From contig NZ_PTIX01000011.1 of the NCBI RefSeq assembly GCF_002934265.1, positions 1 to 64,000 on the forward strand: 64,000 nt of DNA. Reading direction: 5' to 3'. Made by a program: the position numbers and the translations under genes. Every line of letters starts with the position of its first letter. The first letter of the stretch is position 1. Positions 503 to 12,101 of the stretch are shown piece after piece. Source of the DNA: Actinokineospora auranticolor. GTDB taxonomy: Bacteria; Actinomycetota; Actinomycetes; Mycobacteriales; Pseudonocardiaceae. The notes beneath the pieces were generated by a model. That model did no database searches. It was not told the DNA's origin and worked only from the letters and a program-made list of their open reading frames with translations.

Positions 503-1402
503 GTGGTGGCGCTGGACCCGGACGACCTGGTCGAGATCGACTCGGATGTCCCCGACCTGGCCGGGGTCGTGCTGCTGCACCACGTCGACGGCTTCATGGA
601 CGCGGGCTCCGCCGGGGCGACGGTGGCCGCCCACCTGCTGGAGACCCACGAGCACCGGGTCGTGGCCCGCTTCGACGTCGACGACCTCATCGACTACCGC
701 GCCCGCCGCCCCGCGATGACCTACGACACCGACCGCTGGGTCGACTACGCCGCCCCCGAACTGGTCGTCCACCTCCTGCACGACGCGCTAGGCACGCCGT
801 TCCTGCTGTTGGCCGGGCCCGAGCCGGACCGGGGTTGGGAGGCCGTCGCCGCGGCCGTGCGCGGACTCGTCGAGCGGTGGGGGGTGCGGCTGACCATCGG
901 TTTCCACGGCATCCCGATGGGTGTGCCGCACACCAGGGAGCTGACGGTCATCTCGCACGCCACCCGGCCCGAGCTGGTCACCGACAAGTCCCCGTTCAGC
1001 CGGGTGCAGGTGCCGGGTCACCTGTCGGCGCTGCTGGAGTACCGCCTCGGACAGGCCGGCCACGACGCAATGGGCCTCGCCGCGTACGTACCGCACTACC
1101 TCGCCCAGAGCACCTACCCGGCCGCCGCCCTCAAGCTCCTCGACGCCCTGACCTCCGCCGCGGGCCTGGTCACCACGACCGACCCCCTGCGCGAAGCCGC
1201 CGCCCGCGCCAACGCCGAGATCGCCAGGCAAATCGCCGACTCCGACGAGATCACCGAACTGGTCCACGGCCTCGAACAACAGTACGACGCCTTCACCAGC
1301 AGCCCCGAAACCCTGCTCACCGACACCGAACAAGTCCCCAGCGCCGACGAACTGGGCGCCGCATTCGAACGCTTCCTGTCCGAACAACCCCGCGACAACT
1401 GA
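503..1402 (+). CDS. PAC2 family protein (proteasome assembly chaperone-like)
   Basis: This 299-residue product matches the actinobacterial PAC2 family in length and plan: an N-terminal alpha/beta region (about residues 1-75, LAGVVLLHHVDGFMDAG), the central segment TDRWVDYAAPELVVH followed by LLLAGPEPDRGW, the FHGIPMGVPHTR segment near residue 140, and an acidic helical C-terminal tail. PAC2 proteins resemble eukaryotic proteasome assembly chaperones; the bacterial role is not settled. GTG at 503 sits 3 bases after a GGGAGG site at 494-499, so the adjacent GTG at 506 is an equally good start. It stands alone, with degraded DNA on both sides. Confidence 0.85.
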   Translation: MVALDPDDLVEIDSDVPDLAGVVLLHHVDGFMDAGSAGATVAAHLLETHEHRVVARFDVDDLIDYRARRPAMTYDTDRWVDYAAPELVVHLLHDALGTPFLLLAGPEPDRGWEAVAAAVRGLVERWGVRLTIGFHGIPMGVPHTRELTVISHATRPELVTDKSPFSRVQVPGHLSALLEYRLGQAGHDAMGLAAYVPHYLAQSTYPAAALKLLDALTSAAGLVTTTDPLREAAARANAEIARQIADSDEITELVHGLEQQYDAFTSSPETLLTDTEQVPSADELGAAFERFLSEQPRDN

Positions 1403-2066: not shown

Positions 2067-2780
2067 TCACCGGCCGCCGCTGAGGCCCGCGAGATCCACG
2101 AGTGTCCTGTATACGTCCAGACCGTCGTAGCTTCGCTGATCCCAGGTCGCGGCCGTGAACAATACGTGCCGCTGTCCGTTCCGCACGCGCGGGAGGAGCA
2201 CTTCCAGATACGACACGACGACGTCTTTGATACGAGAGGGCGGCCACGCCTCAGCGAGAACCAGCATTTTCGGGATCGTGACATCACTATCCTCCACCAT
2301 ATGCGCACCAGTCGCGGGCAATCGCTGGTCAAGCAGGTCGATGCCGCCACGGAAAGCGACTCCGACCAAGGTGGCAGCGCTGAAGTCGTTACGTTCGAAA
2401 CGGTTTCGACCGCCACGCCGGGCCGCGGTGAAGTTTACCTCGCTAATCCGCCCGGTAAATACACAGTCGACAAACTCGACCGACTCGCAAAGCCATTTCG
2501 ACAACTTTGCGTCCCGGAAAGCGCAACGCTCGAACCGCGCCACGCCGGGCGACGGGGCACTGATGTGCGCCCCGTCGAACGTGCAGTCAACGTACTCGGT
2601 GACCTCGGTCCCCGACCCGAAGCATGCTCGACGGATCCTGCTCTTGTCGAACGCGCAGCGGTCGAACCGTGCCGACATCGCGTCGAAGTAGTCCAGTTCG
2701 AGCCCCACGAAGGACTCGTCGACGTGAACGCCTTCCAACTCCAAACGCCGCACTGACGACACGGTCCGACTCCTGTTCAC
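2067..2780 (-). CDS. pentapeptide-repeat-like protein, putative immunity protein for the RHS toxin
   Basis: The 237-residue product contains a run of short repeats with phenylalanine or cysteine at the inward-facing position (ARFDRCAFDKSRIRRACF, EYVDCTFDGAHI, ARFERCAFRDAKL, EFVDCVFTG, NRFERNDFSAATLVG), the pattern of a right-handed pentapeptide-type beta helix, over about residues 15-145; the remaining 90 residues are helical-looking. Its GTG start (2780-2778) overlaps the TGA of the RHS gene (2779-2777) in a GTGA junction, so translation is probably coupled. In polymorphic toxin loci the gene directly after the toxin tip is normally the cognate immunity gene. That role is inferred from position, not from a known immunity family. 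Confidence 0.7.
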   Translation of the reverse strand: MNRSRTVSSVRRLELEGVHVDESFVGLELDYFDAMSARFDRCAFDKSRIRRACFGSGTEVTEYVDCTFDGAHISAPSPGVARFERCAFRDAKLSKWLCESVEFVDCVFTGRISEVNFTAARRGGRNRFERNDFSAATLVGVAFRGGIDLLDQRLPATGAHMVEDSDVTIPKMLVLAEAWPPSRIKDVVVSYLEVLLPRVRNGQRHVLFTAATWDQRSYDGLDVYRTLVDLAGLSGGR

Positions 2781-5700
2781 CGTTGTGAGGCCATCATGTT
2801 CAGATTGTAGGCCACGTAGGCGGTGTCCTTATACGCACCACCCCTCTGGTAATGGGCCGTGACCTGCCCACGAGTGGTCAACTCGACGTGCGTGTTGTTC
2901 TGCTTGTCGAAGTAGTCCGGTCCACGAGACGCGTTGTACTCGAACCGTTTCGGGAAGAGTCTCGCCAAAATCTTTTCGGTGGCCCGGTGCACCGCTGTGC
3001 CCGCGAACATCCGGGTAAGCATCGGCTTCTCCCTCATGACCCTGATCTCGGCTTCCGACAGGTTTTCCTCGATCAGGGTCTCCATCGTGTTCTCCGTGAG
3101 CACCTGCTCCGTAGCCGAGCGCACGATGTCAGCGGACTCGAACTTCTTCGTGCCGACACCGATCGGAGCGGCGACAAAGACCGTGGCCGAGGCGATCTCG
3201 ATCCCGATGTCGACGCAGTTCTCCTTGTAGGACTTGCACAGCTCCGAGTGCAGTTCCTCCCGCATCGCCTCCTGGATATGGGAGGGCGCACCGTTGTCGT
3301 AGTCCAGAAGTTCGTCATAGGACCTGCCGTCGGCTACCCGCTGCGCCACCTCGGCCTTGACGCGCTCCATGTCCTTCGCCCACGGGCGCGGTTTGGGCTT
3401 CGGGATCAAGGCTCGTTGGGTCGCGCGGTTCACCGCTGCCTGCCAACGGTCCCGCTGCGCGGGTTTCAGGTATGCCTTCGCCGCGGCGGCGGTGATCGGG
3501 CTCAAGCCGTTGGCTTCGTAGAGCACGTTGTCATAGCCGTAACGATCAGACGCGCATCCGCAGTCGGAGAAATCGCCACCGGGGTCGCTCAACGTAACGG
3601 GATTGCCGTTGCCGTAGGCATACCCGTTCATCTGCTGTGGATCGGTGACGTCCAGAACCGGGTCCACCGAGATGAACCGGCCGACCGCCGGGTCGTACTC
3701 ACGCGCGCCGAGGTGGACCAGACCCGTACTGGCGTCGGTGGTGCCGTTCACGAACGAGCGTTCGCCGGGCCACACGCCGGGCGCGGCCCCACGACTGCCA
3801 CCGAACGGGAGATACCGCTTGCGCTGGACATCCAGGGTGACCGCGTCGATCGCGAAGTGGCTCGTGCCGTGGTGGTCGGCGGAGAACCACGTGACACCGG
3901 CGGCGGTCCTCGCGCCGATGACACGATCGGCGAACGTGTAGTAGCGAGTCCCCGTGACAGTGCCCGCGGCTCGGTTGCACCGCAGCTCCGTGTCACCGAG
4001 GTACAGAGTCGTGTGGGTCGGGTCACGACGCAGCAGTCGCTCCCCCTCGGCGGTGTAGAGGAAGGTCGTGGTCTGCCCACCCGCGGTGTCCGAGGCGAGC
4101 GAGCCTTCGGCGTCCCAGGTCAGCGTGTGTCCCGGTTGGCCTGCCACATTCCTCGTGAGGGTGTCACCAGCGTCGTTGTAGGTGAACGCGTCGGTGGTCG
4201 TCGGCACACCGGGCTTGGTCGTGGTGACCCGGCTGAGACTGGTCGGCCTCGGCTGACCGGTCGCCGGATACGTGTATGTCCTGGTCGTGTCGCCGGCCGC
4301 GGCATGTTGCGTTTCGCCGGTCCTCTTACCGATCGCGTCGTAGGCGTAGGACTGCCAGTACGGAGCCGGACCACCGAGCCCGCCGACGGTCGGGTTGGTC
4401 GCGCAGTTGTCCGTCGAGGGAGTCCAAGCCTCGGTGATCCGCTGCTGGCTGTCGTGGCGGAAGCACTGGATGTCCGACGCGAGCCCGATCGGCAGGTCCG
4501 CGATCCGCTTGACGTTGCCCGCCTCGTCGTAGGAGAAGTAGAGATTTCCCTGGTTCAGCCCGGTCGCCTGGCGGTCGAGGCGCAACTGCGACAACCGCCG
4601 CGTTCCGCGCTCGTAGTAGAAGGTCTGGGTAACCTTCTTGCCTGTCGCCGCGGTCGAGGTGACCAGCTGGCCGAGTTCACCGACGTCGGTGTAGGTGGTC
4701 TGTTTGACGTAGCTGCTCGCTCCGGTGAGGGTGTCGGGCAGTCCCAGGGCGTTGTAGCCGATCGCGACGGTCTCACCGGGAAGTCCGCCGACCGCGGGGT
4801 AAGCGAGGCTTTCCAGACTTCCGTTGGGGCGGTACGCCGCAGTGGTCGAGTACGAGCCCGCAAGTGCACCTTCCGCCGCGGGGATGGTGACCGTGGTGCC
4901 GGTCGACCTGCCGCCGGTGTCGTAGCCGTTGATTGTCGTCGTATAGGCGTTCTGGTTGTCGAAGCGCGTACTCGACGCGGCCATGCCGATGCCGTTTGCC
5001 GCAGTGTCATATGTCCACGCCGCGCGCTTCGTGCCGATCAGCGAACCGTCGTAGACGGCCTTCTTCCTGGAAAGCTTGTCGTACTCGTAGGCGAGGGTGA
5101 CGTTGCGCGCGTCCGTCGAACTGCTCAGGCGGCCGGCGTCGTCGAAGGTGTAATTAGTCGCCCCCTTCGCTGGGTCCTCTTCCCGGGTCTTGAAGCCCCG
5201 CAGGTCGTAGTAGTTTCGCCACACGCTGCCTGCGGGGTCGGTGACCGTGGCCAGTTCCGCCGCATGGGTGTAGGTGTAGGTCGTACTCTGGTACGTCCCC
5301 GTCGGAGCAGAGCCGAGGTAGTGCCGCAGCTCCGTGGTCTTGCCCCTGGCGTCGGTGATCGTCGTAGTGGGGGTGGCACCCACGGGCGGGTCCACGTGCA
5401 CACGGTCGCCGCCGTAGGTCGACGTGGTCCGCCACTTCTCGGCGCCCATCTCTCGGAGGATCTCGGCTGTCTTTCGGCCGACCCCGTCGAACTCGGTCAC
5501 CGTCTGGTTGGGGACATCGTTGTCATTGACCGGCGTGACCAGGGTGTAGTCCGGAGGAGCGCTGTTGTAGAACGGCCCATTGCTCTTGAAGGCCGAACCA
5601 CGTGCGTCGTAGTGGACCTCACTGATGACTCGACCACCGGCGACACCAGGCGACGGCGCCTGAGTCTGGCGAGGCCTCAGGAGACCGTCGTAGAAGGCGT

Positions 5701-8700
5701 AGGTGTAGGTGTAGGTGCTGCCATCGACCCGTAGGGACTTGGTGGCGACGTAGTTGGCCGCACCGGTCTGCAGCACGTATTGGTACTCGATGCTGGCACT
5801 CAAGGTGATCGGCCTACCCGGCAACCACACCTTGGACAAACGACCGAGGGCGTCGTACTGCACATCGGTTCGACGCGCATTCGCGTCACTGACCGATACA
5901 GGGGTCCCCCAGGCGGGCTCGACACCGGTGGTGATGGCGTGGCCGAGCGGGTTGGTGATCACCGTCTGCGTCACCGGCCCGCCCGTGGCCGGGGTGAACG
6001 CCATGGTGCTGCGCTCGCCCGCCGCGTCCCATGACTCGACCGCACGGCCGTATTGGTCATGGGTCGCACGGTCGCTGACCACATAGGCGGGCGCGGATCC
6101 ACCCCACGACTTCGCGACCTCTGTCTTCGTGATGTTCCCCTTTGTAGGGGGCGTGCCGTGCACGGTCGCACCGTCGTAGTAGGTACGCTTGTCGGAGACC
6201 AGGTCCGCGGGATACGAGGCGGTGCCGGTGCAGGCGACACCCAAGATCTCCTGGCGACTCGGGTAGGCGAGCAGCCACGCTGTGGAATTGACCGCGTAGG
6301 TCGTCTTCGTGCACAGGTCGTCGGTCGATGTGGCGACGTCCCCGAGGTCGGACACGGTCAGCGGCTGCCCGCTGGTCTCGTCAACGGTGGTGTCGACGCG
6401 GGTGTTGCGCCAGCCGCCCGCGTCGAGGGCAGTCCTGGTTCGGACACTGGTGTTGGTGACCAGATGTGCCGTCGTGGTGCCCCAAGGACGGACATTCGTG
6501 GCCTTGGCCGGGGAGATCCACGGATCGACCACCGTCGCGGAGATCACGGTGTTGTCGGTAGCCGACCTGTAGGTCACGGTCTCGCGGGTTGAGGCCGCGA
6601 GCACGTTCTTGTCCTCGATGGTGCCGCCCGCGCCGTCGGCGACCCAGATGTCGCGGCGCGTGCCGTTGGCGAGTTTGTCATCGTCCATCCCGCGCAGGTA
6701 GGTGGTGACCGTGCGGGTCTTGGTGACGGTGGAGTCACCGACGATGACGCCGACCTGGCCGTAGCCGCGCCACTGGGACCACGTTTTGCGCGAGGCGGGG
6801 ACGAGGCCGTCCTCGTCGTCGTAGTGCCAGGCGGGGGTGTTGATGTACTCGTAGCTGGTGAGGACCGGGCGGCCGCCGGAGGTGTTGTCGGACTCGGTGA
6901 CGCTGGTAACGACGTATTTGTGGAACCAGTCCAGCAGCTGGGGTTGGCCGTCGGGGGTCCAGTAAGTCGGGAAGCAGCGTTTGGTGTTGGAGTCCGGTGA
7001 GGTGGGCATGGCGCCGTTGCGGTTGCACTCGCGGTCGGAGTAGGTCACGGCGATCTGGCCGCCGGTCTCGTTGGCGATGGACGAGATGCGGTAGCGCACC
7101 AGCGGCGGCAGGGTGTCGATGCCGTCGACGCGGTTGCTGAGCGGGACCTCGTTGAAGTTGACCTCGGGCACGGTCGCGGTGCCGCCGACCAGGCCGGTGT
7201 GCTTGATCGACTCCAGCCACAGGGCCGCGCTGGTGCTGTCGCCCGGGTCGAGGTAGCGGTGGTCAAGCGTCCAGGAGTCGACGTCGCGGTAGGCGGTGCC
7301 GCCCCAGACCTGGGTGGTGATCTTGTTCAGCCGTTTCTGGGTCCAGAAGGTGGGTGAGACCTTGCCCGCGCAGGTGCCGCTCGCGCAGTTCTGGTCCCAG
7401 GGCACGTCCGGCCAGTTCGACGGCGTCGAGGACGTGCATGTGGCGCCCGCGGTGACGCAGCGGTCGGCGGCGGTGAACTGCACGCGCATCGGGGCCTGGG
7501 CGGTGGTGACCGCGTTGTTGGTGCCGTAGTCGATGCGGTCGAGCCAGCCACCGCGGTGGTAAGTGGCGCCGGCGGAGGCGAGGTTGCGGCCGTAGAGGTT
7601 GGACTCGGTCTGGTAGGTGTAAACGGTGGTATTGCCGTTGGGATCTACCACGTAGTCGAGGTTCCAGCGGTAAGCCTGCTGGCACCACGAGGTCGCGAAC
7701 GACCCGGTGACGTAGCAGTCCTCACCGGAGTTGTTGCCGAACACCGGCACCGTCCACACCGAATTCGACGTCGCACGGGTGCCGAAGTGGTACTGGGTAC
7801 CGTCGACGGTGGTGATGCGCCAGGATTCGCCGTTGTTGTCGCCGTTGCCGGAGGTGGTGGTCTTCTCCACGCGCGAGCCGTCGTCGTTCTTGAGCTTCCA
7901 CACGCCGTCGGCGTCGTTGCGGATCAGCTCGCTGGCCTTGCCGCCCAACGTGACGTACGCGTTCTCGGTGCCCCAGCACAGGTCACCGGTCTTGGTCTGG
8001 CCGTTGTTGCCGCCGAGGTCATCGGCGCAGGCCTTGTACCGGCGTTCCACATGGCCGCCGACGGACAGCTCGAAGCCCTCACCGACCCACGACGGCTGGT
8101 TGTTGGTCGAAGCGGTGCGACCGTCCACGCTGCCCGACGAGTACGCCAGCGACACCTGCGGCGCGGCGCCACCCAGCGTCGGAGGTACCCGCATCGGGTA
8201 CGACCAGGTGAACTCGCCCGAGGAGCCGCCCGCGTTCCAGGTGGACGACGGAGCGAGCGCGCTGGCGCCGAAGTCGCCACCACCGCCGGAGGGGCCGGCT
8301 ACGAGAGCGTACATGCGGCCATCGGCGACGCCGTCCGTGGCGATCGTCCCGGCCTTGGTGTCGTTGGTCGAGGCGACCTCCGTCGGCGCGCACTCCTGCT
8401 TGTCCGGAGTGGACAGAGCGCACTCGGGCAGGCGCGCGAGCCGTAGCCGCGACGCCCAGTCACCGCCGAAAGCCGAGCGGAACCGGCCGTAGTCGACCGA
8501 CACCCGCACGCCCGGCTTGGTCTGACCGCCATCCACCCGGAAAGCCAATGAGCCGGGCGACTTCGTCTCCACGGAGCGAACCCGAACCTTGCCCGGTGCG
8601 GCAAGGCCCGCCTTGGCCGCCTGTGGCCTGCTCACCGAGAGCGGCGATTGGGCCGCCTTGACCAAGCCGGTAGTGGCGCCGAGGTCGACCTCGGTATCAA

Positions 8701-8947
8701 CCCCATTGGGCCATGCCACCGCCGGTGTGGCGCCCAAGGCGTGCTTGGGGGCGGGGTCGGTTTTGATCGGGGCGTCGGCCAGGCGCACCGGTACCGAGAG
8801 TTCCCGCTGCGGGGCGGGGAGCGCGATCTCGCGGTCTCGCTCCGGCGCGGCGGCGGCGACCGATTCCGGCATCGCACCCGCGGCCAGGGCGGCGATCGCC
8901 GCGACCGCCGTCAGGCGTAGAGACAGTTTCCATTGAGCTGCGGGCAT
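2777..8947 (-). CDS. RHS-repeat polymorphic toxin with nuclease-like C-terminal tip
   Basis: This is a 2056-residue secreted RHS protein. A signal peptide covers about residues 1-34. An SpvB-like segment (YPMRVPPTLGGAAPQVSLAY) lies near 250-280. YD repeats such as VQYDALGRLSKVW and NYTFDDAGRLSS run through about 1030-1640. The RHS core follows at about 1700-1790 (KRYLPFGGSRG, REYDPAVGRFISVDPV, YAYGNGNPVTLSDP). The last 267 residues differ in character (DCGCASDRYGYDN onward) and end with GPDYFDKQNNTHVELTTRG, where D, the E of VELTT and an upstream E (HRATEKIL) could form a PD-(D/E)XK-like nuclease site; that is inference. ATG at 8947 follows a GGGGAG site. It lies 52 bp after the FG-GAP gene and overlaps the putative immunity gene. 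Confidence 0.9.
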   Translation of the reverse strand: MPAAQWKLSLRLTAVAAIAALAAGAMPESVAAAAPERDREIALPAPQRELSVPVRLADAPIKTDPAPKHALGATPAVAWPNGVDTEVDLGATTGLVKAAQSPLSVSRPQAAKAGLAAPGKVRVRSVETKSPGSLAFRVDGGQTKPGVRVSVDYGRFRSAFGGDWASRLRLARLPECALSTPDKQECAPTEVASTNDTKAGTIATDGVADGRMYALVAGPSGGGGDFGASALAPSSTWNAGGSSGEFTWSYPMRVPPTLGGAAPQVSLAYSSGSVDGRTASTNNQPSWVGEGFELSVGGHVERRYKACADDLGGNNGQTKTGDLCWGTENAYVTLGGKASELIRNDADGVWKLKNDDGSRVEKTTTSGNGDNNGESWRITTVDGTQYHFGTRATSNSVWTVPVFGNNSGEDCYVTGSFATSWCQQAYRWNLDYVVDPNGNTTVYTYQTESNLYGRNLASAGATYHRGGWLDRIDYGTNNAVTTAQAPMRVQFTAADRCVTAGATCTSSTPSNWPDVPWDQNCASGTCAGKVSPTFWTQKRLNKITTQVWGGTAYRDVDSWTLDHRYLDPGDSTSAALWLESIKHTGLVGGTATVPEVNFNEVPLSNRVDGIDTLPPLVRYRISSIANETGGQIAVTYSDRECNRNGAMPTSPDSNTKRCFPTYWTPDGQPQLLDWFHKYVVTSVTESDNTSGGRPVLTSYEYINTPAWHYDDEDGLVPASRKTWSQWRGYGQVGVIVGDSTVTKTRTVTTYLRGMDDDKLANGTRRDIWVADGAGGTIEDKNVLAASTRETVTYRSATDNTVISATVVDPWISPAKATNVRPWGTTTAHLVTNTSVRTRTALDAGGWRNTRVDTTVDETSGQPLTVSDLGDVATSTDDLCTKTTYAVNSTAWLLAYPSRQEILGVACTGTASYPADLVSDKRTYYDGATVHGTPPTKGNITKTEVAKSWGGSAPAYVVSDRATHDQYGRAVESWDAAGERSTMAFTPATGGPVTQTVITNPLGHAITTGVEPAWGTPVSVSDANARRTDVQYDALGRLSKVWLPGRPITLSASIEYQYVLQTGAANYVATKSLRVDGSTYTYTYAFYDGLLRPRQTQAPSPGVAGGRVISEVHYDARGSAFKSNGPFYNSAPPDYTLVTPVNDNDVPNQTVTEFDGVGRKTAEILREMGAEKWRTTSTYGGDRVHVDPPVGATPTTTITDARGKTTELRHYLGSAPTGTYQSTTYTYTHAAELATVTDPAGSVWRNYYDLRGFKTREEDPAKGATNYTFDDAGRLSSSTDARNVTLAYEYDKLSRKKAVYDGSLIGTKRAAWTYDTAANGIGMAASSTRFDNQNAYTTTINGYDTGGRSTGTTVTIPAAEGALAGSYSTTAAYRPNGSLESLAYPAVGGLPGETVAIGYNALGLPDTLTGASSYVKQTTYTDVGELGQLVTSTAATGKKVTQTFYYERGTRRLSQLRLDRQATGLNQGNLYFSYDEAGNVKRIADLPIGLASDIQCFRHDSQQRITEAWTPSTDNCATNPTVGGLGGPAPYWQSYAYDAIGKRTGETQHAAAGDTTRTYTYPATGQPRPTSLSRVTTTKPGVPTTTDAFTYNDAGDTLTRNVAGQPGHTLTWDAEGSLASDTAGGQTTTFLYTAEGERLLRRDPTHTTLYLGDTELRCNRAAGTVTGTRYYTFADRVIGARTAAGVTWFSADHHGTSHFAIDAVTLDVQRKRYLPFGGSRGAAPGVWPGERSFVNGTTDASTGLVHLGAREYDPAVGRFISVDPVLDVTDPQQMNGYAYGNGNPVTLSDPGGDFSDCGCASDRYGYDNVLYEANGLSPITAAAAKAYLKPAQRDRWQAAVNRATQRALIPKPKPRPWAKDMERVKAEVAQRVADGRSYDELLDYDNGAPSHIQEAMREELHSELCKSYKENCVDIGIEIASATVFVAAPIGVGTKKFESADIVRSATEQVLTENTMETLIEENLSEAEIRVMREKPMLTRMFAGTAVHRATEKILARLFPKRFEYNASRGPDYFDKQNNTHVELTTRGQVTAHYQRGGAYKDTAYVAYNLNMMASQR

Positions 8948-8999: not shown

Positions 9000-11900
9000 T
9001 CAGAAGTACCGGGTGCGGGTGGAGTCGAGTCCGTTGTCGCCGCTGTTCCACTTCTCCAGCGGTGCTCCGTACGCCGATCCGGTGGAGTAGTTCAACCACA
9101 GCGCGGTGCGCCGGTTGGCGTACTGGTAGGCGAAGCCGATGTCGCCGTCCCCGTCGCCGTCGACGTCACCCGCGAACGGCGTCATGTTCGTCCACTCGGC
9201 GTTGCCCGGCGGATTGTTCCACCAGACGGTGGGAGCCAGCGCTCCGGTCGCGGTCGACTTGAACGTGAACACGCTGAAGGTGGCGTTGTAGTAGTTGTAG
9301 AACGCCACGAGGTCGTCCTTGCCGTCACCGTTGGCGTCGGTGACCACGTACTTGCCCCGGCCCATACTCCAGTTGTTGACACCGCTGTCCCAGGCCATGA
9401 CGCCGCCGCCGAACGCGGTCCCGGTCGAGTACTGGTACCACAACCTGGTCTGCGCGTTGCCGTAGTCGTAGGTGCAGCCGACGTCGTCCTTGCCGTCACC
9501 GTTGAAGTCGCCGGAGATCACCGACAGGTTGGCCCACTCCGCCGAGCCCGGCGGGGTGTTCCACCACGTGGTGGGTGCCTGCGCTCCGGTCGCGGTGCTG
9601 AGGAGGGTGAAGATGGAGAAGGTGGCGTTGAAGTAGTTGTAGAACGCGATGACATCGTCCTTGCCGTCGCCGTTGACATCGCCGATGGTGGCCTTGACCC
9701 GGTTGAGGTCCCATCCGTTGGGACCGCTGTCCCAGGCCGGAGCCGAGGGCGCGGTGTAGCCGAGACCGTTGCCGTAGAACACCCACAACGTCACCCGGTA
9801 GCCGCCGTCGTCACGCAGTACCAGCAGGTCGCTACGGCCGTCGCCGTTCGCATCGCCCTCCAGGACCTTGGTTCGGTCGGGCAGGAACGCCGTGTTCGGG
9901 CCGCTGTACCAACTCTGCGTCATCGGGTAGAGGCCGGTGCCGGAGGAGGTGAAGCTCAGGAAGTCGGACTCGTCGCTGTCGAGCTGGCGCATCGCGGCCA
10001 CGTCGGCCAGACCGTCACCGTTGACGTCGTGCTTGACGTGCGAGGTCGACGCGGGCTCGTCGGGGTAGAACGGATACGCCCGGTAGGTGTCGGACCTGTT
10101 GCCCGCCTTGTCGATGCTGTAGACGTACAGCGTCAACAACGTGCTCGACGGCGCGACCACCGGCACCGTCGCTGGGCGTCCGGTCCCGGGGCCTGCGGCA
10201 ACGAAGTACGTCGTGTTCTCCGTTAGCCCATAGCGGTAGCCGTAGACGTCCGGGTCTGCCGAGGTGAAGGTGAACTCGCCCCGCGACCCGGCCGCGATGC
10301 CCAGGTCGTTCTCGGGGAACGACGACGAACTCACCCCCGGAACCGCGGTGGGTCTGGTGGTGTCGTAGCCGAACTCGCAGTACCCGCTCCACGGGCCGGA
10401 CACCCGGCTGTCCGCCCCGCGGACGCGCCACTTGTACGCGACTCCGTCCGCCAAGCTCGAGGTCGGGATCACTGCGGAGAACCGGGTTCCCGAGGCCAGA
10501 GCCGGCGTCGTGTAACCGCCCACCGCGGTGCCGTCGAGCTTGGCCCACTCGAACTGCAACTGCACGTTCGCGCTGTCGGGATCGGTGCCCGTGGCGAACA
10601 ACGTGGGCGAGGTGTTCGTGACCGGCCGGTTGACGCCCGAGGCGCACGGCAGGTTGATGTCGGCGTAGAGCGCCGAGGGCGTGTCCGGGGTCGAGTTGTA
10701 CTCGATCACCAGCTTCGGGTCGGAGCTGAACTTCTTCCACGACTGCGTGTCGTTGGCGTTTTCGCGGTCCACCGGTGCCTGCAGCGACAGCACGGTGTTC
10801 GCGTAGTTGTTCGCCGCCGCCTCCACGACCGCGGACTTCGCGTCGAACTCCACGATCCCCGGGGCGCAATCCCCGGTCCCACCGGACTTCTTCGCCGCGG
10901 TCACCGAGGTGATGTAGCGCCGCCACGGCTGGTTGTTCCACGTCGTGCCCGGGCCGATGTCGCCACCGGCCCACAACTGCGTCTCGGTCTTCGCGCACGA
11001 CCAGCTGTGGTACATGTTCGCGCGGAAGGTCGCGCTGATGATGTCCTTGCCGTTGACCGCGCTCGTTCCCATCCGGAAGTACGCCCGCTGCGTCGTGCCG
11101 TCGGTCGACTCGTAGCCCGAGTTCGTTCCCACCTCACGCCCGGACGACCAGTACGACTGGTTGGGGAACTTCCTGTTCACATACGTCCACGCCCACGTGT
11201 CCGCGGTGAACCACGGGTCGATCGACACCGGGTACACCGTGTCCGGCGCCGAGAGCAGCTCCGCGTCCGGCACGACCGCGAGCTCGGCGCGGTCGAGCCG
11301 CACCGGCATCGCCGCTTCCTTGCGCGAGGGCCCGTCCTCCTGCGAGACCTGAGCCCTCCGAGCTGCGGGCTGGGCGTCGCTCGAGTCCCACATCACCGGT
11401 GTACCGGCCGCGAACACGACCGCACCCGAGTCGTCCACAGCCGACACCGCGCCCGAGCCGCCCTCCTGGCGCAGTCGCAGACCGGAAACGCTGTAGCGGT
11501 ACCGAAGCTCCGCCAACTCCGGGTTCGCCGCCGCTTCACGGTCCTTCACCACGACCAGCAACCGCGCACCGCCGGCCTCCGCGCGCAGCTGCAGGTCCAC
11601 GCCCTTCAACACCTCGGGATAGGTCGCCGTGTCACCGGAGAGCACCGGCGCCGGGAGCACACCCGGCCACGACAGGGCCATCCGCTTGCCGTTGCGACTG
11701 AACGCCATCAACGGCGATGAGCCACCGGGCGAAAAGCTCACGTCGACCGCGGTAGCGCCCGCGACGACCCGACCACCGTCGAGCCGCAGAGACGTGTCGA
11801 TGTCGACCCACGCCCCGTTCTTCCTGGTCCGCACTGGCTTCCCGGTCTGCTCGAGTGTCAACGACCCCGAGGGGTTGACGAATACCTGCGCCGACTCCGA

Positions 11901-12101
11901 ACGCTGGTCGAGAACCTCGACCCGCCGACCCGACACCCGCGCGGCCACCCGCGCGGCCGATTCCGTCGCAGCCTCGGTGACCGCTACCACCGGTTGCGAA
12001 GATCGCTGCGCGGCGGCGGGAACTACCGGCAGCACGACCACCGCGGTGCTGAGTGCGCACGCGAGCACGCCAAGTCGTCCGAACACGGATACCCCATCCA
12101 T
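9000..12101 (-). CDS. secreted DNRLRE-domain and FG-GAP/VCBS-repeat protein
   Basis: The 1033-residue protein begins with a signal peptide (VLACALSTAVVVLPVVPAAA, cleavage near residue 31). Residues about 290-470 match a DNRLRE domain (YPVSIDPWFTADTWAW, YFRMGTSAVNGKDIISATF, PKLVIEYN), a carbohydrate-surface type fold. From about 690 to the end there are six calcium-binding FG-GAP/VCBS repeats of the form GDxNGDGxxD (DVNGDGLADV, DANGDGRSDL, DVNGDGKDDV, DFNGDGKDDV, DANGDGKDDL, DVDGDGDGDI). It is the first gene of the operon with the RHS toxin, so it is probably a partner exported to the cell surface. Pairing of such an exoprotein with an RHS gene is common in actinomycetes. Confidence 0.85.
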   Translation of the reverse strand: MDGVSVFGRLGVLACALSTAVVVLPVVPAAAQRSSQPVVAVTEAATESAARVAARVSGRRVEVLDQRSESAQVFVNPSGSLTLEQTGKPVRTRKNGAWVDIDTSLRLDGGRVVAGATAVDVSFSPGGSSPLMAFSRNGKRMALSWPGVLPAPVLSGDTATYPEVLKGVDLQLRAEAGGARLLVVVKDREAAANPELAELRYRYSVSGLRLRQEGGSGAVSAVDDSGAVVFAAGTPVMWDSSDAQPAARRAQVSQEDGPSRKEAAMPVRLDRAELAVVPDAELLSAPDTVYPVSIDPWFTADTWAWTYVNRKFPNQSYWSSGREVGTNSGYESTDGTTQRAYFRMGTSAVNGKDIISATFRANMYHSWSCAKTETQLWAGGDIGPGTTWNNQPWRRYITSVTAAKKSGGTGDCAPGIVEFDAKSAVVEAAANNYANTVLSLQAPVDRENANDTQSWKKFSSDPKLVIEYNSTPDTPSALYADINLPCASGVNRPVTNTSPTLFATGTDPDSANVQLQFEWAKLDGTAVGGYTTPALASGTRFSAVIPTSSLADGVAYKWRVRGADSRVSGPWSGYCEFGYDTTRPTAVPGVSSSSFPENDLGIAAGSRGEFTFTSADPDVYGYRYGLTENTTYFVAAGPGTGRPATVPVVAPSSTLLTLYVYSIDKAGNRSDTYRAYPFYPDEPASTSHVKHDVNGDGLADVAAMRQLDSDESDFLSFTSSGTGLYPMTQSWYSGPNTAFLPDRTKVLEGDANGDGRSDLLVLRDDGGYRVTLWVFYGNGLGYTAPSAPAWDSGPNGWDLNRVKATIGDVNGDGKDDVIAFYNYFNATFSIFTLLSTATGAQAPTTWWNTPPGSAEWANLSVISGDFNGDGKDDVGCTYDYGNAQTRLWYQYSTGTAFGGGVMAWDSGVNNWSMGRGKYVVTDANGDGKDDLVAFYNYYNATFSVFTFKSTATGALAPTVWWNNPPGNAEWTNMTPFAGDVDGDGDGDIGFAYQYANRRTALWLNYSTGSAYGAPLEKWNSGDNGLDSTRTRYF

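What the first reader, a model, noticed from the sequence alone, without database searches (positions are those of the whole stretch)
2067..3600. New-looking nuclease-type toxin tip with pentapeptide-like immunity partner
After the conserved RHS core the last 267 residues carry GPDYFDKQ and VELTT, a spacing that could form a PD-(D/E)XK-like active site, preceded by a helical stretch with a conserved-looking Glu. The overlapping next gene is a beta-helix of pentapeptide type, a fold that can mimic DNA. A DNA-mimic immunity protein against a DNase tip would make sense.
Basis: partly seen in the sequence, partly recalled or inferred. Interest (0 to 1): 0.6.

Follow-up and report, generated by a model that had tools for sequence, protein, structure and literature searches.

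The report
RHS nuclease-fold toxin with beta-helix immunity
A soil actinobacterium carries a large secreted RHS protein whose swappable tip is very probably a nuclease toxin with an unusual active site, paired with a gene for a beta-helix protein that most likely protects the producer by binding the tip, a pairing that recurs in every intact relative found.

Summary
Gene 2777-8947(-) encodes a 2056-residue RHS protein whose core ends near residue 1791; the tip matches nothing in Pfam, NCBIfam or the PDB by sequence. The next gene (2067-2780, 237 aa, 4-nt overlap) is a weak pentapeptide-type protein. Eight further intact copies of the tip were found in other actinobacteria, on RHS and non-RHS carriers. 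Each has a homologue of the 237-aa protein directly downstream; that protein also occurs alone, in two genomes beside other immunity-type genes. This is a polymorphic toxin-immunity cassette. The AlphaFold model of the tip (pLDDT 80, pTM 0.81) has the alpha-beta-beta-beta-alpha-beta core of PD-(D/E)XK nucleases, and the top PDB matches are all such nucleases (influenza PA-N, EcoRV), though individually weak. The conserved residues are His1987, Pro-Asp2011, Glu2022-x-Thr2024 and Arg/Lys2035. The strand lysine is replaced by Thr, the order published for orthomyxovirus and hantavirus endonucleases (H..E..PD..ExT..K), without the second acidic residue. DNA mimicry is not supported: the partner is near neutral (net charge -8 to +1). 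Substrate, toxicity and binding are untested.

The parts
2777..8947 (-). secreted-type RHS protein, 2056 aa, carrier of the toxin tip
   Evidence: YD/RHS repeats, TIGR03696 core E=9e-16 at residues 1712-1791; N-terminal hydrophobic stretch looks like a signal peptide by eye (not tested)
3575..3814 (-). RHS-associated core domain (residues 1712-1791), boundary with the tip
2780..3142 (-). toxin core (residues 1936-2056), PD-(D/E)XK-like fold, lower GC (58.7%) than the RHS core (about 67%)
2981..3001 (-). motif I, GTAVHRA helix, His1987 (codon 2987-2989)
   Evidence: Glu at this position in remote relative G1331
2906..2923 (-). motif II, GPDYFD, Asp2011 (codon 2915-2917)
2873..2887 (-). motif III, VELTT, Glu2022 and Thr2024 (ExT in place of ExK)
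2843..2854 (-). helix after the motif III strand: His2032 (His or Lys in relatives) and Arg2035 (always Arg or Lys), candidates for the displaced catalytic base
2777..2780 (-). 4-nt overlap (GTGA) between RHS stop and immunity start
2067..2780 (-). beta-helix (pentapeptide-like) immunity protein, 237 aa
2346..2753 (-). beta-helix part of the immunity protein (about residues 10-145); the remainder is predicted helical, low confidence
9000..12101 (-). upstream FG-GAP repeat protein, 1033 aa, same strand, 52 nt before the RHS gene; accessory role inferred only

Best explanation
A polymorphic toxin-immunity cassette at the end of an RHS gene. The 121-residue C-terminal core of the RHS protein is a metal-dependent nuclease of the PD-(D/E)XK fold. 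Its metal site is built from His1987, Asp2011 and Glu2022, and the catalytic lysine of the third motif is replaced by Thr, the positive charge probably coming from Arg/Lys2035 or His2032 in the following helix. After export the RHS shell would carry the tip to neighbouring bacteria, where it would cut nucleic acid. The overlapping downstream gene makes a beta-helix protein that binds the tip directly and blocks it in the producer. Shown here: gene order, homology, conserved motifs, recurrent pairing, predicted fold. Inferred: export and delivery, cleavage, which nucleic acid is cut, binding by the partner.
For: Tip model pLDDT 80.4, pTM 0.81, core alpha81-103, beta108-110, beta118-120, beta125-131, alpha132-140, beta149-153. 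The 50 best Foldseek PDB rows are all influenza PA-N and the VIA-align rows are all EcoRV, influenza PA or Thogoto PA. H, PD and E are invariant in 9 sequences. Every intact tip has the partner directly downstream: window, G005, G042, G853, G844, G888, two in G878, G1051; a search of 390 genomes of the bacterial family found no intact tip without it. Partner alone in G011; with DUF4926 next to it in G015; behind two other small genes in G006. In G042 a 94-nt direct repeat (95.7%) flanks tip plus partner and a displaced tip follows. G003 carries a related RHS end with a different tip and partner. G110, which lost H, PD and the basic residue, has no partner beside it.
Against: No activity, toxicity or binding data. 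Structural matches are weak one by one (Foldseek E at best 0.047, VIA Z at best 4.8) and the alignment behind the model has three sequences. No conserved acidic residue between His1987 and Asp2011, where related two-metal nucleases have one. Coevolution of tip and partner is not significant once near-identical pairs are removed (r=0.51, p=0.11).
Confidence: 0.72

Rival explanations
1. One reading: a DNase tip and a pentapeptide immunity protein that works by imitating DNA, as MfpA and Qnr do with gyrase.
For: PD-(D/E)XK fold; beta-helix partner whose best PDB matches are the gyrase DNA mimics AlbG, MfpA and Qnr.
Against: Partner net charge -8 to +1 in 13 homologues and -4 to +6 in the beta-helix part; window copy -1 and 0. 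Over the aligned stretch AlbG has 11 acidic and 6 basic residues, the window protein 11 and 11. Charge was counted over whole stretches, so an acidic patch on one face is not excluded.
Confidence: 0.1
2. The tip is a ribonuclease that works like the orthomyxovirus and hantavirus endonucleases (manganese-dependent, His ligand, lysine moved from strand to helix), and the partner caps its cleft. This is a narrower version of the best explanation, not an alternative to it.
For: Motif order H..PD..ExT..K/R matches H..E..PD..ExT..K given for those enzymes (PMC2940753), where Lys and Thr exchange places; PA-N is the top Foldseek match; in PA-N the lysine sits on the helix after strand beta3 (PMC3893164).
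Against: The acidic ligand between His and PD is not conserved here; the helix residue is Arg in most copies; fold similarity does not show substrate; the viral enzymes also cut single-stranded DNA.
Confidence: 0.35
3. The tip is a catalytically dead or non-nuclease domain with a nuclease-like fold that only binds a target.
For: Lys of motif III is missing and the second metal ligand is absent; G110 shows that members can lose the residues.
Against: H, PD and E are invariant in nine divergent copies, and the one member that lost H and PD also lacks the partner.
Confidence: 0.13

Closest known systems
Tox-REase-9 and other Tox-REase clades of polymorphic toxins (Zhang et al. 2012, PMC3482391)
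   Same: REase-fold toxin domain at the end of RHS and other carriers; Tox-REase-9 is listed with GxxxH, E, D, ELKP
   Different: All ten clades are described as keeping D-[EQ]XK, here ExT; no Pfam match; Tox-REase-9 is listed with Imm54, here a beta-helix partner. A Pfam search for PF15650 rang nowhere, so homology stays open
Cap-snatching endonucleases of orthomyxoviruses (PA-N) and hantaviruses (L)
   Same: Predicted fold and motif order H..PD..ExT..K/R
   Different: Bacterial secreted toxin tip; no conserved acidic residue between H and PD; mostly Arg in place of the helix lysine; no sequence match to the PDB, so common descent is not shown
Pentapeptide repeat proteins AlbG, MfpA, Qnr
   Same: Right-handed beta-helix predicted; best PDB sequence and fold matches
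   Different: Below Pfam's cut-off; near-neutral charge; encoded behind a toxin tip rather than as a gyrase protector

Membership tests
Polymorphic toxin-immunity system (RHS type) | Conserved carrier with a variable C-terminal toxin domain | tested here: met
   Same-genus G003 shares the RHS end but has another tip and partner; the tip occurs on RHS and on non-RHS carriers
Polymorphic toxin-immunity system (RHS type) | Immunity gene directly downstream of the toxin | tested here: met
   Nine of nine intact tips
Polymorphic toxin-immunity system (RHS type) | Toxicity and rescue by the immunity protein | not testable with these tools
   needs expression experiments
PD-(D/E)XK nuclease superfamily | alpha-beta-beta-beta-alpha-beta core | tested here: met
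   AlphaFold model and the composition of the top PDB matches; each match is weak on its own
PD-(D/E)XK nuclease superfamily | PD...(D/E)xK acidic residues | tested here: met
   PD2010-2011 and E2022 invariant in 9 copies
PD-(D/E)XK nuclease superfamily | Lys in motif III at its usual place | tested here: not met
   Thr or Ser-type residues, never Lys, at this place (ELT/ELS/DIT); the lysine position is known to vary in this superfamily (PMC3893164)
Tox-REase-9 (PF15650) | Score over the Pfam cut-off | tested here: not met
   no match at E<=10 for 8 members
Orthomyxo/hantavirus-type His endonucleases | H..E..PD..ExT..K | tested here: inconclusive
   H, PD, ExT and K/R present; the E between H and PD is not conserved
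Pentapeptide repeat proteins | Pfam pentapeptide score / eight or more contiguous repeats | tested here: not met
   21.5 bits against a cut-off of 38
Pentapeptide repeat proteins | Quadrilateral right-handed beta-helix | tested here: inconclusive
   Regular short strands at pLDDT about 85 in much of residues 10-95; best fold matches are PRPs, but E>=0.01
DNA-mimic proteins | Strongly acidic surface | tested here: not met
   Net charge near 0 overall and in the beta-helix; surface distribution not computed

The most novel reading that the evidence does not exclude
Actinobacteria use an undescribed family of secreted antibacterial nucleases whose active site has the arrangement of viral cap-snatching endonucleases (His ligand, strand Lys exchanged for Thr, base on the next helix), neutralised by an undescribed beta-helix immunity family.
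Probability: 0.35. Interest if true: 0.68.

Novelty: new variant of a known kind. Interest (0 to 1): 0.5.

Why it matters
It adds a toxin family and an immunity family that Pfam, NCBIfam and the 2012 polymorphic-toxin catalogue do not hold. The toxin has an active-site variant not listed for REase-fold toxins. The beta-helix partner would be an immunity protein built on a fold best known from gyrase protection, and the small, natural, paired domains make the question of how such a fold blocks a nuclease directly testable.

Tried and rejected
Pfam, NCBIfam and PDB sequence searches of the tip: nothing. Plasmids and viral contigs: no tip relatives. Tox-REase-9 as a sequence yardstick: PF15650 rang in no genome, controls included, so it says nothing either way. 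VIA-align did not list RecB/Cas4 or lambda-type nucleases; since it only re-aligns Foldseek's matches, this is no evidence against them. A RecB/Cas4-type reading of GTAVH was considered: one member matched Csa1 at E=0.14 only. BFVD search weak and mixed. The immunity gene of remote relative G1331 looked beta-helical by eye, but hhalign found no relation, so it is not counted. Coevolution test inconclusive without near-identical pairs. The tip-partner complex could not be modelled, because the structure tool takes single proteins.

Full report
Observation. The RHS gene at 2777-8947(-) encodes 2056 residues. The RHS-associated core TIGR03696 ends at residue 1791, and GPDYFDKQ and VELTT lie at 2009-2016 and 2021-2025. 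The next gene, 2067-2780(-), 237 aa, begins 4 nt inside it. The tip as a whole matches no Pfam, NCBIfam or PDB sequence. The partner matches Pentapeptide_4 below the Pfam cut-off and the PDB protein AlbG at E=1.4e-4. The toxin core and the partner have 58.7 and 62.0% GC against 66-70% in the RHS core and repeats and 70.6% in the window, as expected of an imported cassette.

Relatives. Both have a homologue of the 237-aa protein next. A profile of the partner then found it across the bacterial family. In G853, G844, G888 and twice in G878 it follows a gene whose end is the same tip. G853 and G844 carry the tip on a repeat-rich non-RHS protein; G888 and G878 carry it on RHS proteins. A search of the class by tip alone found G1051, where the tip frame looks displaced from any intact carrier but again has the partner. 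A search of 390 genomes of the family with the nine-sequence tip profile found no further intact copy and none without the partner. Intact tips are rare: 3 of 397 genomes of the order (one of them the degenerate G110), 2 of 394 of the class, 7 of 390 of the family (one of them the remote G1331), the window's own included.

Immunity evidence. The partner is alone, without a tip, in G011. In G015 it lies just after a DUF4926 gene, and DUF4926 is also the gene behind a different RHS tip (DUF6883) elsewhere in the window's own genome. In G006 it is the third small gene behind an RHS-tip-like sequence. In G883 a tip fragment with a broken frame lies upstream. In G853 and G844 it carries an extra C-terminal domain. 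In G042 a 94-nt direct repeat brackets tip plus partner, and a displaced older end with the same junction sequence lies downstream. G003 of the same genus has the RHS end and linker with another tip and another partner. These are the marks of polymorphic toxin loci and of multi-immunity loci as described in PMC3482391. The term pentapeptide does not occur in the part of that catalogue held here. Distances among tips and partners correlate (r=0.87), but this rests on near-identical pairs; with six divergent pairs r=0.51, p=0.11.

Fold and active site. AlphaFold from a three-sequence alignment gave pLDDT 80.4, pTM 0.81 and an alpha-beta-beta-beta-alpha-beta core in residues 81-153 of the fragment 1895-2056. 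The 50 best Foldseek rows are all influenza PA-N (best E 0.047). The VIA-align rows are all EcoRV, influenza PA or Thogoto PA, Z up to 4.8 over about 100 residues. Each match alone would be weak; their uniformity plus the motifs makes the fold assignment convincing. Nine tips keep H (in GTAVH or GRAFH), PD, and E in ELT/ELS. The basic residue at 2035 is always Arg or Lys, and 2032 is His or Lys. A remote tip, G1331, has Glu where the others have His, then PDF and DIT, the canonical acidic residue at motif I. Another, G110, has lost H, PD and the basic residue, and has no partner gene beside it. The motif III lysine is Thr in all but G1051, which has Ser. PMC2940753 gives H..E..PD..ExT..K for orthomyxoviruses and hantaviruses and notes that Lys and Thr exchange places between strand and helix; PMC3893164 places the PA lysine on the helix after strand beta3. 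The tip has that order except for the acidic residue between H and PD. I read this as a working analogy, not as shown descent.

Partner mechanism. The model of the partner is a beta-helix in its first 145 residues and uncertain beyond (pLDDT 63.9 overall); AlbG, MfpA and QnrB lead the fold matches. DNA mimicry needs an acidic surface. The 13 homologues have net charge -8 to +1, the beta-helix part -4 to +6, and the stretch aligned with AlbG has 11 acidic and 11 basic residues against 11 and 6 in AlbG. Direct occlusion of the tip is therefore preferred.

Verdict. A real toxin-immunity cassette, nuclease-fold tip, beta-helix immunity protein; new families of a known kind with an unusual active site. 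Substrate, delivery and binding are inferred.

Noticed in passing
L009 / L042 (G110:C1:3799613-3800056): Degenerate tip relative lacking His, PD and the basic residue, on a non-RHS repeat carrier; a different small ORF (133 aa) overlaps its end instead of the beta-helix gene.
   Followed up: partly
L051 (G1331:C1:2511785-2512102): Remote RHS tip with Glu in place of His (GKYMERA..PDF..DITT), followed by an unrelated-looking 230-residue frame and a further small gene; the partner could be another beta-helix but homology was not found.
   Followed up: partly
L035, L036 (G853, G844): The immunity homologue is fused to an extra domain of about 200 residues with no Pfam match, similar by eye to a separate small gene near the G1331 tip: possible polyimmunity protein.
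   Followed up: partly
L006 (G000:C1:370077-370220 and downstream): Second RHS end in the window's own genome with a DUF6883 tip followed by a DUF4926 gene, probably another toxin-immunity pair; the RHS frame around it looks broken.
   Followed up: partly
L004 oriented 1512-2819 (G042): 94-nt direct repeat (95.7%) flanking tip and immunity gene, with a displaced end (Hint-like by eye) behind: a snapshot of cassette exchange.
   Followed up: yes
window 503-1402 (+): PAC2 family gene (E=8e-62), convergent with the toxin operon; two of the longer frames in the 660 bases between them have no Pfam match.
   Followed up: yes
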